26,377 nucleotides of DNA from a virus, in IMG/VR virus record IMGVR_UViG_3300017971_000698, positions 1 to 26,377 of that record. The stretch is one strand, 5' to 3'. The number at the start of each line of letters is the position of its first letter. Position 1 is the first letter of the stretch. The position numbers and the translations under genes are program-made. This document shows positions 2,550 through 15,577 of this stretch, piece after piece. The notes beneath the pieces were generated by a model. The model did no database searches, was not told where the DNA came from, and saw only the letters and a program-made list of their open reading frames with translations.

Positions 2550-2842
2550 ACTACGTTGCCCCGTCGATTGAGACAATCCGCAAGTACGGTCTTGAGAGCC
2601 ATGTGCGGCGCGCGCTTGGCCTGATCCATGCGGTCAGGGAGCTCGGCGAAAACAGGTGGAGCGTGAACGGTCACGTCGTTGTCTGGGATGGTGTGGGCTG
2701 GCTATGTGATTGCACAGACTACGCGCTCAAGGGGCCGAGTCATGGCTACTACTGCAAGCATCCGCTGGCGGTGTGTCTGAGGAGTGAGGCGTATCGGTGG
2801 CGGGTTATCGAGGCGATTGAAGGAGGCATGAATGACCGGTGA
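2546..2842 (+). CDS. SWIM-like zinc-finger protein (98 aa)
   Basis: Residues ~53-77 read WLCDCTDYALKGPSHGYYCKHPLAV, preserving the CxCx(n)CxH arrangement of SWIM zinc fingers, which bind DNA or proteins (known in MuDR transposases, SWI2/SNF2 helicases and archaeal and phage miniproteins). The N-terminal 50 residues form a helix followed by strands (WSVNGHVVVWDG) leading into the finger. It is directly upstream of the recombinase-like ATPase, and SWIM domains elsewhere partner recombination proteins; a link to the ATPase is inference. ATG overlaps the previous stop. Confidence 0.75.
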   Translation: MNYVAPSIETIRKYGLESHVRRALGLIHAVRELGENRWSVNGHVVVWDGVGWLCDCTDYALKGPSHGYYCKHPLAVCLRSEAYRWRVIEAIEGGMNDR

Positions 2843-4034
2843 AGCGATCAAGACGAAGCTTTTCACCCCGGCGTTGAACCGACTCGCCTACGCGAAGGTC
2901 GCGTTCTACGGATCGCAGGGCGCGGGCAAGACGGGTACGGCAATGCGCGTCGCGATCGGGCTGTCGAAGCTCGCCGGTGGGGAGGACGGGCCGCGCCCAA
3001 TCTTTTTCGTTGACACGGAGACGGGCTCGGACTTCTTCGTCGACAAGCAGGCGGAGAACGCGGTCCGAACGGACCTGACCGACGGCGCGGAGATCCCGCT
3101 CTACCAGCTCAAGACGCGGGCGTTCCGGCAACTGCAAAAGGCAATCGAGGAAGCCGAGGCGAACGGCGCCATCCTCGTGATCGATTCCGTCAGCCACTTC
3201 TGGGATGAGCTGATCGCGGCGTACATGAAGCGGATGCACCGCAAGATTATGAAGTTCCAGGACTGGCAGCCGGTCAAGCACGATTGGCGGGAGATGTTCG
3301 CAACGCCGTTCGTCAACTCGAAGTGTCACATCGTAAGCTGCGGGCGACTCCAGCAGCTCTTCGAGGACATGTTCGACGAGGAGGGCAATCGGGACATCGT
3401 GCAGGTCGGTAGCCGGATGCGCGCCGAGAAGGAGTTCGGCTACGAGGCCAGCCTGGAGGTAGAGATGGAGTCGATGCGGGTCGGCGTCGACGAGCTCCGG
3501 GCTGCGAAGGACAAGAAGGAACGCGCGGGCCTGTCGATCCGCTCGGACATGATGATCCAGGCGACGGTACTGAAGGATCGGTCGGAGATGCTGAACGGGC
3601 AGGTTTTCCAGTTCCCGACGTTCGAGGACTTCCTCCCGCACGTCCAGTGGCTGAACCTCGGCGGCGAGCATCTCGGCGTCGATGCGACCACGAGTGAAGC
3701 GCTGTTCTCGACGGGCAATAGCCACGCGCAGCGCAAGCGCAAGAAGGAGATCGCGCTCGACGAGTTGAAGGAAGAGTTCTCGCGTGCTTTCCCTGGCCGC
3801 GACAAGGAGACGAACATCCTCAAGAGCGACGTCGCGAACGAGATCTTCGGCACGCGCTCTTGGGAGGCCGTGCAGGACATGAAGTTGGAGGAAATCGTAG
3901 ACGGCCTCACTGTCTTTCGTCGCGCGATCGAGGAGATCCAGACAACGGAGCAGCCCGACGTGGCGGACATCGTGAGTCGAGCGAAGGACGAGGTGAAAGC
4001 CGAGCGAGAGATGGCGAGCACAGTGGTAGAGTAG
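2832..4034 (+). CDS. RecA-like AAA_24 / Sak4-like ATPase (400 aa)
   Basis: Walker A GSQGAGKT lies at residues 27-34, the DTETGS loop at 61-66 and Walker B ILVIDS at 114-119, followed by SHFWDE. This is the phage nucleotide-binding protein group (AAA_24) related to Sak4, RecA-core single-strand annealing ATPases that work with a phage SSB in recombination. The C-terminal 150 residues are charged and may bind partners; Sak4 itself is shorter, so this is an extended form. ATG 2832 has AAGGAGG upstream and overlaps the SWIM gene by 11 bases. The neighbouring nuclease and Cas7-like genes suggest a recombination block. ATPase is confident; annealase role is inferred. Confidence 0.85.
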   Translation: MTGEAIKTKLFTPALNRLAYAKVAFYGSQGAGKTGTAMRVAIGLSKLAGGEDGPRPIFFVDTETGSDFFVDKQAENAVRTDLTDGAEIPLYQLKTRAFRQLQKAIEEAEANGAILVIDSVSHFWDELIAAYMKRMHRKIMKFQDWQPVKHDWREMFATPFVNSKCHIVSCGRLQQLFEDMFDEEGNRDIVQVGSRMRAEKEFGYEASLEVEMESMRVGVDELRAAKDKKERAGLSIRSDMMIQATVLKDRSEMLNGQVFQFPTFEDFLPHVQWLNLGGEHLGVDATTSEALFSTGNSHAQRKRKKEIALDELKEEFSRAFPGRDKETNILKSDVANEIFGTRSWEAVQDMKLEEIVDGLTVFRRAIEEIQTTEQPDVADIVSRAKDEVKAEREMASTVVE

Positions 4035-4035
4035 C

Positions 4036-4064
4036 TTGCACGACCTACTCTTACGATATATACT
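4036..4064 (+). promoter_or_regulatory. Candidate promoter for the GIY-YIG / Cas7-like genes
   Basis: TTGCAC at 4036-4041, a 17-base spacer and TATACT at 4059-4064 lie directly after the ATPase stop codon. The -10 box is near consensus and the -35 is weak. A start near 4071 would place the whole periodic repeat at 4095-4192 in the 5' leader of the GIY-YIG mRNA. Confidence 0.5.
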
Positions 4065-4094
4065 TGTGCTGTTGTACCGTGGAAGGGCGTGTTG

Positions 4095-4192
4095 GGCTAA
4101 GGCATAGCCGGGCAAGTCAAGGCGAGGACGATGCGCTGAGGACGGGTGACGCATGGTGCGGCGATGCGAGGCGCGGTGTGGCAAGGCAAGCT
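4095..4192 (+). repeat. Degenerate pentameric repeat, copy A (NGGYN, 5-bp period)
   Basis: GG or GC steps recur every five bases. In one phase they fall at 4101, 4106, 4111, 4116, 4121 and 4126; in a second at 4155, 4160, 4165, 4170, 4175, 4180, 4185 and 4190 (units such as AGGCG, CGGTG, TGGCA, AGGCA). The stretch is non-coding, strand-biased for purines and G-rich, and lies between a candidate promoter and the GIY-YIG start. The period of five excludes a codon explanation. Function unknown. Confidence 0.72.
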
Positions 4193-4216
4193 TCACGGAC
4201 GGGAGAAGGAGGCACG

Positions 4217-4588
4217 ATGCACCCACTACGGACACCTATCGGAATCGATGAGGGTTCCGACGGTGCAGTTACCATCTCGGGGACAATCCCACGGCTTGCC
4301 TCATGGGAGCGGATCTCGTTCCGGGACATCGAACAGCTGCCACGTGCGCCAGGCTGTTACGCTCTGTACCGCGCGGGAGAGCTGATCTATCTAGGAGAGT
4401 CAGACAACATCCAAGAGCGGCTGCGGGGCCACAGGAAGCACTTCGATGAAGCGCGCTGGTTGCGCGTTGACGGCTTCCAGCGCGTGCTGATTGAGAAGGC
4501 GCTGATCTGGCGCTTCATGCCGGCAGAGAACAAGGAGATGAGCCGGCACGATTGGCGGATGAGGATAAAAGAGGAGGTGATGTGTTAG
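4217..4588 (+). CDS. GIY-YIG nuclease domain protein (123 aa)
   Basis: Start ATG 4217 follows GAGAAGGAGG. The full GIY-YIG signature is present: G46-C47-Y48 (GIY), Y58-L59-G60-E61 (YIG), R68 in IQERLRGHR, catalytic-position E93 in LIEKALIWRF, and N105. It is a stand-alone minimal domain with ~40 extra residues at the N-terminus and no DNA-binding finger at the C-terminus. GIY-YIG enzymes cut DNA and occur as homing endonucleases, repair nucleases (UvrC, Slx1) and restriction enzymes. The gene is flanked on both sides by pentameric repeats, and could be a repair/recombination nuclease or a small mobile gene. Confidence 0.8.
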   Translation: MHPLRTPIGIDEGSDGAVTISGTIPRLASWERISFRDIEQLPRAPGCYALYRAGELIYLGESDNIQERLRGHRKHFDEARWLRVDGFQRVLIEKALIWRFMPAENKEMSRHDWRMRIKEEVMC

Positions 4589-4760
4589 GCCAACGGGGAA
4601 TGGTTTGGCGCGGTCCGGCGGGTCCTGGGCAGGTCGGTGTATGGTAGAGCGAGGCAGGATCCGGCAGAGCATGGCCTGGCAAGGCAAGGACAACCGGGCG
4701 TGATTAGGCTAGGTTCGGCTTGTCCAGATAGGGCAAGGTACGGCAAGGTAGAGTGAGGAG
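4586..4760 (+). repeat. Degenerate pentameric repeat, copy B (NGGYN, 5-bp period)
   Basis: This fills the 177-base gap between the GIY-YIG and Cas7-like genes. GG pairs fall in register at 4602, 4607, 4612, 4617, 4627, 4632; then 4643, 4653, 4663, 4673, 4678, 4683, 4688; then 4707, 4712, 4717, 4732, 4737, 4742, 4747 and 4757. The last units read AGGCT AGGTT CGGCT and later AGGTA CGGCA AGGTA. Units are not identical but the five-base register persists with two phase shifts. The end of the array runs into the AGTGAGGAG ribosome binding site of the next gene. Confidence 0.78.
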
Positions 4761-4765
4761 AAATC

Positions 4766-5392
4766 ATGAGGAAGTTTAGCGTAACGATCCAAGGAATGGC
4801 TCCGGGGCTTTTGCAGCACCGGTACGACCCGACTCCACAGATGTCAGGCGCGAAGGTGGCATCGGCCCCGAAGTTCAGTCTCTCCGAGTGGAGAAACGCC
4901 GTCTATGCTACTGAAGACGGCAAGGTCTATCAACCTGCCGTCCATCTTGAGCAAGCGATCAGCATCGCCGCGAAGACGGAACGGATGAAGGGACAGAAGA
5001 CGTGGATGGACTGGGTTCGTGGGAACCTTCTCATCACGCCTGATGAGATTCCACACGGCGTCGACATGTCGAGCCTCGAAAAGGCGGAGAGCGCTCCGCA
5101 GCAACCGCTCGGGAACGCGTTGGTCTACCGCAACGGACAAGCGGCCTTGCACGTCGCGCGAGCAATCGTCGGCAAGGCTGCGGTCCCGAGGGTCCGCGTC
5201 TTGCTGTTCCCTTGGTCTCTGTCGTTCACGATTCACACACGCGATGTGCCTTTCGAGATGCCGGCAGATGTCTTGGAGCGGATCATCACGAACGCCGGGA
5301 TCTTCCCGGGCATCGGGGACTACAGGCCGCAGTGCAAGGGCAAGCACGGCACTTTCGAGCTCGTTGAGATGGCAGAGGAAGCAGTAGCATGA
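4766..5392 (+). CDS. RAMP/Cas7-like phage protein (208 aa)
   Basis: Start ATG 4766 follows GAGTGAGGAG. The opening strand VTIQGMAPGLLQHR, the segment WRNAVYATEDGKVYQPAVHLEQAI, the core FPWSLSFTIHTRDVPFEMP, and the C-terminal glycine-rich loop GIFPGIGDYRPQCKGKHGTF (the tail of the fold) recall a family common beside AAA_24 ATPases in phages. The Gly-rich GxGxxRxxxxGxF loop and ferredoxin-like strand order resemble RAMP/Cas7 proteins, which coat RNA or ssDNA. A direct role, such as binding ssDNA with the Sak4-like ATPase, is inference. Its leader is the pentameric repeat B. Confidence 0.7.
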   Translation: MRKFSVTIQGMAPGLLQHRYDPTPQMSGAKVASAPKFSLSEWRNAVYATEDGKVYQPAVHLEQAISIAAKTERMKGQKTWMDWVRGNLLITPDEIPHGVDMSSLEKAESAPQQPLGNALVYRNGQAALHVARAIVGKAAVPRVRVLLFPWSLSFTIHTRDVPFEMPADVLERIITNAGIFPGIGDYRPQCKGKHGTFELVEMAEEAVA

Positions 5393-14109: not shown

Positions 14110-14282
14110 ACGCCGAGACGCTTGATCGTGCAAAGAAGGAAGCCCTACGCTTCGTTGATCGTATTCGCGCCTACCAGGCGGCGGCGTGCGATGGCGGCGC
14201 TCCTGGGAAGGATCGCGCGGCGGTGCGACGGGCATCGATGGATCTGACGCGGACGCTCGCGGATCTGAGGCAGGGAAGATAG
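14106..14282 (+). CDS. Short conserved phage protein (58 aa)
   Basis: ATG 14106 overlaps the previous stop (ATGA). Two helices separated by a glycine-rich turn: DRAKKEALRFVDRIRAYQ, then GGAPGKDRAAVRRASMDLTR and LADLRQGR. Ends 15 bases before the methyltransferase gene. This type of helical hairpin with a RRASMDLTRxLAxLR ending is recurrent in phages; no function is known. Confidence 0.68.
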   Translation: MNAETLDRAKKEALRFVDRIRAYQAAACDGGAPGKDRAAVRRASMDLTRTLADLRQGR

Positions 14283-14296
14283 ATAAGGGCGTCGAA

Positions 14297-15577
14297 ATGC
14301 CGGAAACGAAGATACGGATAGCGTGCGAGGGAGCTGCAACACTGCCTCTCGACGCGTTTGAGTTCTTCCAGGGGGACCTCAAGAAGCTTACGCCGAAGAA
14401 CGCCGAGCGGCTCCGCAAGGAGATCCTCCAGGACGGCTTCTCGGAACCGGTCGCCGTCTGGCGCAAGGGAGAACACAACTGGATCCTCAACGGGCACCAG
14501 CGCATCGCGGTGTTGCGGAGCATGGCGGACGAGTTCGAGATTCCGCCGCTGCCCGTGTCATGGGTCGAGGCGAAGACGTACAAGGAGGCGAAGCACAAGC
14601 TTCTCGGACTGACTTCGCAGTACGGCGAGATGACGTTCGATGGGCTGGCTGCGTTCTCCAAGGATCTTGATCTGTCATTCGACGACCTGGACACGACATT
14701 CCGGTTTCCGGAGGTCGATCTATCTGCGTTTCGCGAGATGGAGGACGATTCCGAGGCGGTTGCCGAGATGATCGATCGCGCCGAGGCTCTTCTTGAGAAG
14801 TGGGGAGTGGAACGTGGACAGATATGGGAGATTTCCGGCAAGGCGGGAACGCATCGAGTGATGTGCGGGGATTCGACGGACGATGGCGATGTGGCGTTAC
14901 TGCTTGGCGACGCGGAGCCGTATCTGATGGTGACTGATCCGCCGTATGGCGTGGAGTATGACCCGACGTGGCGCGATGAAGCTGGCGGCCAATTTGGCGA
15001 TGGCAGGACAGTGCAGCGCGGTAAAGTATTGAACGATGACCGCTCAGATTGGAGCGAGGTGTTTCGCAACTGGCCGAGCGCAGTCCTATATTCCTGGTCG
15101 CCGGGCGGCGACCACATTATAGCGACGGGCAAGGCAATTCTTGACGCCGGGTTTCAGATCCGTGGTCAGATCATTTGGCGGAAATCTCACTTTGTACTGA
15201 GTCGCGGAGCATACCACTGGCAGCATGAGCCTTGCTGGTACGGAGTTCGGAGTGGCTCGAAAGCTAAGTGGGTAGGAGATAGGAAACAGTCAACGGTGTG
15301 GGATCTCGCTGGGATGAATCCTGCCGGAGGATGCGGCGAAAAGAAAACTGGACATGGGACACAGAAGCCCGTCGAGTGCATGGCGCGGCCTATCCGCAAC
15401 CACGAGGGTAACGTGGCTGACCCATTCCTCGGCTCTGGCACAACTGTAGTGGCTGCCGAGCAAGAGGGGCGTATCTGCTACGGCATGGAGATCGAGCCGA
15501 AGTACGCCGCCGTGACGCTTGAACGTCTCGCTGCGTTGGAGCTTGAACCAAAACAGGTGACGGATGTCCGGTTGTGA
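14297..15577 (+). CDS. ParB-like / DNA N4-N6 methyltransferase fusion (426 aa)
   Basis: Residues 15-75 form a ParB/sulfiredoxin-like domain (LPLDAFEFFQGDL, ILQDGFSEPVAVW, NGHQR with GHQR at 66-69). The methyltransferase follows: DPPY at 214-217 (catalytic motif IV) and, far downstream, DPFLGSGTT at 375-383 (AdoMet motif I). With DPPY before the FxGxG motif this is a beta-class amino methyltransferase, producing N6-methyladenine or N4-methylcytosine. Start ATG 14297 has only a weak ribosome binding site. No matching restriction enzyme is adjacent, so it is an orphan likely used against host restriction. Target site cannot be read from the sequence. Confidence 0.88.
   Translation: MPETKIRIACEGAATLPLDAFEFFQGDLKKLTPKNAERLRKEILQDGFSEPVAVWRKGEHNWILNGHQRIAVLRSMADEFEIPPLPVSWVEAKTYKEAKHKLLGLTSQYGEMTFDGLAAFSKDLDLSFDDLDTTFRFPEVDLSAFREMEDDSEAVAEMIDRAEALLEKWGVERGQIWEISGKAGTHRVMCGDSTDDGDVALLLGDAEPYLMVTDPPYGVEYDPTWRDEAGGQFGDGRTVQRGKVLNDDRSDWSEVFRNWPSAVLYSWSPGGDHIIATGKAILDAGFQIRGQIIWRKSHFVLSRGAYHWQHEPCWYGVRSGSKAKWVGDRKQSTVWDLAGMNPAGGCGEKKTGHGTQKPVECMARPIRNHEGNVADPFLGSGTTVVAAEQEGRICYGMEIEPKYAAVTLERLAALELEPKQVTDVRL

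What the first reader, a model, noticed from the sequence alone, without database searches (positions are those of the whole stretch)
4095..4760. Five-base periodic G-rich repeat fills both gaps around the GIY-YIG gene
GG (or GC) steps recur every five bases in both gaps, in runs of up to eight to eleven units, with two or three phase shifts, although the units differ in sequence. Nothing else in the window does this. The non-identical units but fixed register imply selection on spacing, not recent slippage. Established precedent: TRAP binds RNA at (G/U)AG triplets spaced to a five-base period, and RAMP/Cas7 filaments bind nucleic acid with a short fixed footprint. The repeats sit in the leaders of the GIY-YIG and Cas7-like genes, so they may be a binding track for the Cas7-like protein (an autoregulator), a replication or recombination site, or a target for the nuclease.
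Basis: partly seen in the sequence, partly recalled or inferred. Interest (0 to 1): 0.82.

Follow-up and report, generated by a model that had tools for sequence, protein, structure and literature searches.

The report
Phage RNA-guided VIPR locus
The odd five-base rhythm beside this phage gene is most likely a set of guide RNAs for a small CRISPR-like protein, a phage-versus-phage weapon called VIPR that was first described in 2026; this copy is a divergent one with a DNA-cutting-type enzyme gene set between the guides.

Summary
Both gaps carry a GG-every-five-bases register far beyond chance: a GGY/NN register score of 34.5 and 55.5 against a maximum of 14.0 and 20.5 in 1000 dinucleotide shuffles each, and nothing else in the window above 13.5.

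The units are GGYNN: a fixed GG-pyrimidine and a variable dinucleotide. That is the signature of vrRNAs, the guide RNAs of VIPR (Viral Interference Programmable Repeat), described in a 2026 preprint (PMC13142463).

The 208-residue protein is a Vipr. AlphaFold (pTM 0.85) gives a RAMP fold; the 50 best PDB matches listed are all CRISPR effector structures. Its family aligns with the prototype SUSP1 Vipr (hhalign E 2e-33). Its PHROG (4652) occurs in 40 of 50 phage records with such tracts, usually directly beside them, and in 0 of 41 records without.

So the tracts probably encode guides that the Vipr protein carries to matching DNA of rival elements. The GIY-YIG gene between the two tracts is a plausible accessory nuclease: a relative (L167) has a restriction-type nuclease-like gene in the same position. 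No natural target was found. TRAP-like binding and autoregulation are not supported. This is a new, divergent member of a known kind.

The parts
4036..4064 (+). weak sigma-70-like promoter (TTGCAC, 17 nt, TATACT) just before the first tract; inferred start of the first guide transcript near 4071
   Evidence: read from the sequence; -35 matches only 3 of 6, so it fell below the promoter scan's threshold; inference only
4081..4194 (+). vrRNA-like tract 1, two register runs: A (4086-4125, NN = GT GG AA AT CG AA AA GA) and B (4145-4194, NN = GA AT GC GA GA GC GT AA AA TC)
   Evidence: register score 34.5, 0 of 1000 shuffles reach it; units decoded
4217..4588 (+). GIY-YIG nuclease-like gene (123 aa), candidate accessory (vap) gene, sandwiched between the tracts
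   Evidence: Pfam PF01541 E 0.0013, below the curated cut-off; UvrC GIY-YIG domain in PDB E 0.003; link to VIPR by position and analogy with L167 only
4597..4761 (+). vrRNA-like tract 2, register runs C1 (4602-4626), C2 (4628-4687, NN = AG GG AT AG GA AG CC AG AT CT AA AA) and D (4697-4756, NN = GT TA TA TC TT CA AG AA AC AA AG GA); runs into the ribosome-binding site of vipr
   Evidence: register score 55.5, 0 of 1000 shuffles reach it; strongest period-5 power of the window; decoded
4766..5392 (+). vipr gene: 208-aa RAMP (Cas7-like) protein, PHROG 4652
   Evidence: phrog_4652 E 3.9e-11; AlphaFold pLDDT 85.5, pTM 0.85; best PDB matches are CRISPR effector structures; family aligns with SUSP1 Vipr, E 2e-33

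Best explanation
The two gaps encode guide RNAs (vrRNAs) of a phage-borne VIPR system. Each transcript is a chain of GGYNN units. The 208-aa Vipr protein is inferred to coat the RNA, gripping each GGY and leaving each NN free to pair with DNA, one target base being skipped between dinucleotides, so that the NN series specifies a sequence in a rival phage, satellite or prophage. The complex would block transcription there. The GIY-YIG protein, encoded between the guides, may cut the bound DNA. Shown here: the register, the RAMP fold, homology to the characterised Vipr, and the co-occurrence of tract and gene. Inferred from PMC13142463: RNA production, the pairing rule and the interference. Weakly inferred: the role of the GIY-YIG protein.
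For: Register far above chance and unique in the window. Units have the published vrRNA form GGY + variable NN; SUSP1's own vrRNA tracts, re-read here, also contain one-G-off units such as TGT and AGT. Predicted RAMP fold: all 50 PDB matches listed are CRISPR effector structures, mostly Csm and type VII, best E 2.5e-6, probability 1.00; BFVD lists a 'Cas system-associated RAMP superfamily protein'. Family profile against SUSP1 Vipr: hhalign probability 99.9%, E 2e-33; SUSP1 Vipr hits phrog_4652 with 323 bits. phrog_4652 in 40 of 50 IMG/VR records picked only for a GGCAA repeat with a variable tract, and in 0 of 41 records without variable tracts. In all 30 relatives mapped, same-strand GGYNN tracts lie near the gene, most within 75 bases. 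Nearest relatives L158-L167: tracts beside vipr in all but L165, hammerhead ribozymes inside the array in three, as the preprint reports for some types.
Against: No natural target found: exact 10-unit queries for runs C2 and D gave no IMG/VR hit, and 8- or 9-unit seeds gave only chance-like hits that do not extend. About a third of the units deviate from strict GGY. No conserved structured 3' tail or ribozyme was recognised at this locus. Relatives' vipr is only 18-34% identical and the window protein sits on a long branch. No expression data exist.
Confidence: 0.9

Rival explanations
1. The tracts are mRNA leader elements bound by the Cas7-like protein to control its own operon (TRAP-like autoregulation), without any DNA target.
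For: Both tracts lie in the leaders of genes, tract 2 runs into the vipr ribosome-binding site, and no DNA target was found.
Against: Binding for regulation alone would not keep the NN bases variable while fixing GGY; many relatives have tracts downstream of vipr or long arrays (up to 251 units in L080), not only leaders. (G/U)AG triplets are not at a five-base spacing.
Confidence: 0.05
2. The tracts are simple tandem repeats or low-complexity G-rich DNA (slippage, G-quadruplex) without a dedicated partner.
For: Many related tracts contain perfect GGCAA runs, and spaced GG pairs could form weak two-tetrad quadruplexes (own knowledge).
Against: In the window the units differ while the register and the pyrimidine hold; Tandem Repeats Finder sees only a 19-base array there. 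The tracts co-occur with one protein family (40 of 50 against 0 of 41).
Confidence: 0.02
3. VIPR is real here, but the GIY-YIG gene is an unrelated selfish homing endonuclease inserted between two guides.
For: Only 3 of 50 tract-bearing records have a GIY-YIG gene, none next to vipr; GIY-YIG and HNH homing endonucleases are common in phages (own knowledge), and L158 has a free HNH gene after its tract.
Against: L167 has a DUF2726/DUF559-like gene in the same tract-gene-tract-vipr order, and L166 keeps its homologue (49% identical) just upstream of the vipr tract. PMC13142463 reports nuclease accessory genes in some types.
Confidence: 0.45

Closest known systems
VIPR (Viral Interference Programmable Repeat) systems, PMC13142463; prototype Escherichia phage SUSP1 (type II)
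   Same: Phage-encoded; one small RAMP protein with a conserved glycine-rich C-terminal motif, homologous to SUSP1 Vipr; intergenic GGY/NN pentanucleotide tracts on the same strand beside the gene; a candidate DNA-acting accessory gene in the operon.
   Different: Vipr is divergent and lies outside the SUSP1 clade; both tracts lie upstream of vipr with the accessory gene between them; more one-G-off units; no recognised 3' tail; the accessory gene is GIY-YIG rather than the SUSP1 Vap1 protein; no target identified.
Cas7/Csm3 backbone subunits of Class 1 CRISPR effectors
   Same: Predicted fold and, by inference, polymerisation on a guide RNA.
   Different: No sequence similarity reported by Pfam or NCBIfam; guide is a five-base repeat with variable dinucleotides instead of a contiguous spacer.
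TRAP (trp RNA-binding attenuation protein) sites
   Same: RNA elements with a roughly five-base register in gene leaders.
   Different: TRAP needs (G/U)AG triplets, which show no five-base spacing here; the partner protein is a RAMP, not a TRAP ring.

Membership tests
VIPR | RAMP-fold Vipr protein of about 20 kDa | tested here: met
   AlphaFold pTM 0.85; the 50 best PDB matches listed are all CRISPR effector structures
VIPR | homology to a characterised Vipr (SUSP1) | tested here: met
   hhalign 99.9%, E 2e-33; phrog_4652 hits SUSP1 Vipr at E 2e-98 and the window protein at 3.9e-11
VIPR | G-loop | tested here: met
   C-terminal G-G-R-G pattern: G182, R187, G195 invariant and G178 nearly so in 31 sequences; identity as the RAMP G-loop is by analogy
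VIPR | thumb domain | tested here: inconclusive
   RAMP fold matched as a whole; thumb not delimited
VIPR | vrRNA tract of 9-16 YNNGG units with fixed GGY and variable NN | tested here: met
   runs of 8, 10, 5, 12 and 12 units; 30 of 47 strict GGY, 17 one G off
VIPR | tracts in intergenic sequence flanking vipr | tested here: met
   4597-4761 abuts vipr; 4081-4194 lies one gene upstream; same in relatives
VIPR | 3' structured tail of the vrRNA | tested here: inconclusive
   no Rfam match at the locus; tracts end near ribosome-binding sites; no covariation test possible without close relatives
VIPR | vrRNA expressed and bound by Vipr | not testable with these tools
   needs small-RNA sequencing and pull-down
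VIPR | NN series matches a DNA target with one skipped base | tested here: inconclusive
   no credible target in IMG/VR (runs C2, D) or 84,980 genomes (run C2 only)
VIPR | accessory (vap) gene acting on DNA | tested here: inconclusive
   GIY-YIG candidate between tracts; L167 has a DUF2726-family gene there
TRAP-type leader | (G/U)AG triplets at a near-constant short spacing | tested here: not met
   0 and 1 pairs at lag 5
CRISPR-Cas | CRISPR array and further cas genes | not tested
   no dedicated array search was run and only some window genes were scanned

The most novel reading that the evidence does not exclude
A phage-borne VIPR lineage in which the RNA-guided RAMP is paired with interchangeable DNA-cutting-type accessory genes (GIY-YIG here, DUF2726/DUF559-like in L166/L167, HNH in L158) encoded among the guides, that is, target destruction used by phages themselves, whereas the preprint assigns nuclease types to host defence.
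Probability: 0.3. Interest if true: 0.78.

Novelty: new member of a known kind. Interest (0 to 1): 0.55.

Why it matters
VIPR was described only in 2026 and reads DNA by a non-contiguous RNA code thought to predate CRISPR. This locus widens the family: a divergent Vipr outside the studied type II clade, tolerant of one-G-off units, with a nuclease-type gene between guides in a phage. It also shows that PHROG 4652 (listed as unknown function) is the Vipr family, and that a simple five-base register scan finds VIPR loci from raw sequence.

Tried and rejected
Single-sequence relative searches of IMG/VR with the Vipr and ATPase proteins found nothing; the Vipr protein has no tblastn relative in annotated phages or plasmids. 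The 31-row alignment was too divergent for pattern search; a three-row alignment worked. Cronobacter phiES15, nearest to the ATPase (39%), has no gap after its ATPase gene. Target searches: run C2 with 10 units and run D with 10 units gave 0 IMG/VR hits; run C2 with 8 units gave 3 IMG/VR hits and with 9 units 2 genome hits, and run D with 8 units gave 29, all with chance-like extension. Nothing in the window itself is targeted. Rfam gave no credible match in the window. TRAP-like spacing rejected. A GIY-YIG gene is not a general neighbour of vipr. Assignment to one of the seven VIPR types was not possible because the preprint's supplement could not be read here.

Full report
WHAT IS THERE. The window is an uncultivated virus record of 26,377 bases from IMG/VR with a portal gene and other phage-type genes. 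On the + strand: an AAA_24 / Sak4-like ATPase (2832-4034), gap 1, a 123-aa GIY-YIG-like gene (4217-4588), gap 2, and the 208-aa gene (4766-5392).

THE OBSERVATION. GG pairs are in excess at lags 5, 10 and 15 in both gaps, and period-5 power peaks in the window at 4601-4720. A local score that rewards GG-pyrimidine every five bases and allows small shifts gives 34.5 (4081-4194) and 55.5 (4597-4761); 1000 dinucleotide shuffles of each gap never exceed 14.0 and 20.5, and the rest of the window stays at or below 13.5. Decoded by hand, the runs are A (8 units), B (10), C1 (5), C2 (12) and D (12). All 47 units have a pyrimidine at position 3 in this register, 30 are strict GGY and 17 lack one G. The register was chosen to fit, so the shuffle test, not this count, carries the statistics.

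RELATED TRACTS. Most of these loci contain long tracts of GGC + variable dinucleotide. A full-text search then led to PMC13142463, which describes VIPR: a phage-encoded RAMP protein, Vipr, with vrRNAs made of alternating GGY and hypervariable NN, which recognise DNA through the NN bases with one skipped target base between them, and repress rival phages, satellites and prophages.

MEMBERSHIP. The 208-aa protein matches PHROG 4652, unknown function, E 3.9e-11. That PHROG is found in 40 of 50 records chosen for the repeat with a variable tract and in none of 14 control genomes; in a second set, 0 of 41 IMG/VR records (chance target hits, or GGCAA hits judged to lack a variable tract) have it, while SUSP1, the prototype, hits at E 2e-98. 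The control set was picked by me and is not random. In all 30 relatives mapped, same-strand tracts lie near the gene, most within 75 bases. The SUSP1 record shows GGY/NN tracts on both sides of the gene I take to be its Vipr (28474-29061, minus strand), as the preprint describes. The window family aligns with that protein (hhalign 99.9%, E 2e-33). The AlphaFold model (pLDDT 85.5, pTM 0.85) has as its 50 listed PDB matches only CRISPR effector structures, mostly Csm and type VII. The protein's identity as a Vipr is therefore well supported.

NEAREST RELATIVES. Eleven loci (L158-L168) encode closer relatives. Tracts lie beside vipr in the complete ones except L165, whose flank looks repetitive but scores below threshold. 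L160, L161 and L164 carry Hammerhead_II ribozymes above Rfam's gathering score inside the array, matching the hammerhead-interspersed arrays of the preprint; L161 also has a GemA gene of Mu-like phages. L167 has the order tract (255-389), gene, tract (782-965), vipr, the same order as the window; the gene is homologous (49%) to one in L166 that matches DUF2726 and DUF559 weakly, families I know as PD-(D/E)XK-type nucleases (own knowledge). L158 has an HNH gene after its tract. In a tree of 37 Viprs the window groups with these (support 94/79) outside the SUSP1 clade (95/91), on a long branch whose place is unsure.

HOW IT PROBABLY WORKS. A transcript from about 4071 (weak promoter-like match, inferred) or from the ATPase operon would carry the guides. 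Vipr would bind the GGY steps and present the NN bases to DNA. The runs give NN series usable as predictions, for example C2: AG GG AT AG GA AG CC AG AT CT AA AA. C2 ends in AA AA and B has AA AA just before its last unit; tracts elsewhere often end in GGCAA units. Whether these terminal units are a fixed handle was not tested and the sampling pattern favours them.

TARGETS. None found. Exact 10-unit queries with C2 and D gave no hit in IMG/VR. Seeds of 8 or 9 units gave 3, 2 and 29 hits whose remaining units match at chance level. Nothing in the window is targeted. Only exact seeds could be searched in the collections and the likely rivals may be unsequenced, so this neither supports nor refutes.

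THE GIY-YIG GENE. It matches GIY-YIG weakly (Pfam E 0.0013, under the cut-off; UvrC domain E 0.003) and keeps the G-Y, YLG and arginine signature by eye. It is not a general neighbour of vipr (3 of 50 records, none adjacent). Accessory nuclease and passing homing endonuclease are about equally likely. The preprint main text names nuclease-bearing types, places them in host defence, and does not mention GIY-YIG; its supplement could not be read here.

VERDICT. Real, functional in kind, and already explained by a system published in 2026: a new, divergent member of VIPR. The open and interesting part is whether phages themselves run a DNA-cutting VIPR with interchangeable nucleases.

Noticed in passing
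L080 2209-3494 (reverse complement coordinates): A single GGYNN tract of about 1.3 kb and 251 units, with four-base register slips recurring every roughly 45 bases; looks like a staggered or end-to-end guide array.
   Followed up: partly
L167 255-1531 and L166 1817-3081: A DUF2726/DUF559-like gene upstream of vipr, in L167 between two guide tracts; candidate nuclease accessory gene (49% identical between the two loci).
   Followed up: partly
L160 1075-1132, L161 3147-3204, L164 479-536: Type II hammerhead ribozymes inside vrRNA arrays; a second, sub-threshold hammerhead in L161 at 2147-2206, ahead of vipr.
   Followed up: partly
PHROG 4652: Family listed as unknown function; it is the Vipr family (SUSP1 Vipr scores 323 bits) and can be re-annotated.
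   Followed up: yes
window 2832-4034: AAA_24 / PHROG 1366 ATPase related to Sak4-like annealing proteins, 39% identical to a Cronobacter phage phiES15 protein, directly upstream of the VIPR locus.
   Followed up: no
window 14186-15577: N6/N4 DNA methylase gene with an extra N-terminal region, upstream of the packaging genes.
   Followed up: no
window 4180-4189, 4678-4687 and many relatives: Guide runs often end in or near GGCAA GGCAA; may be a fixed 3' handle, but the sampling pattern favours this and it was not tested.
   Followed up: no
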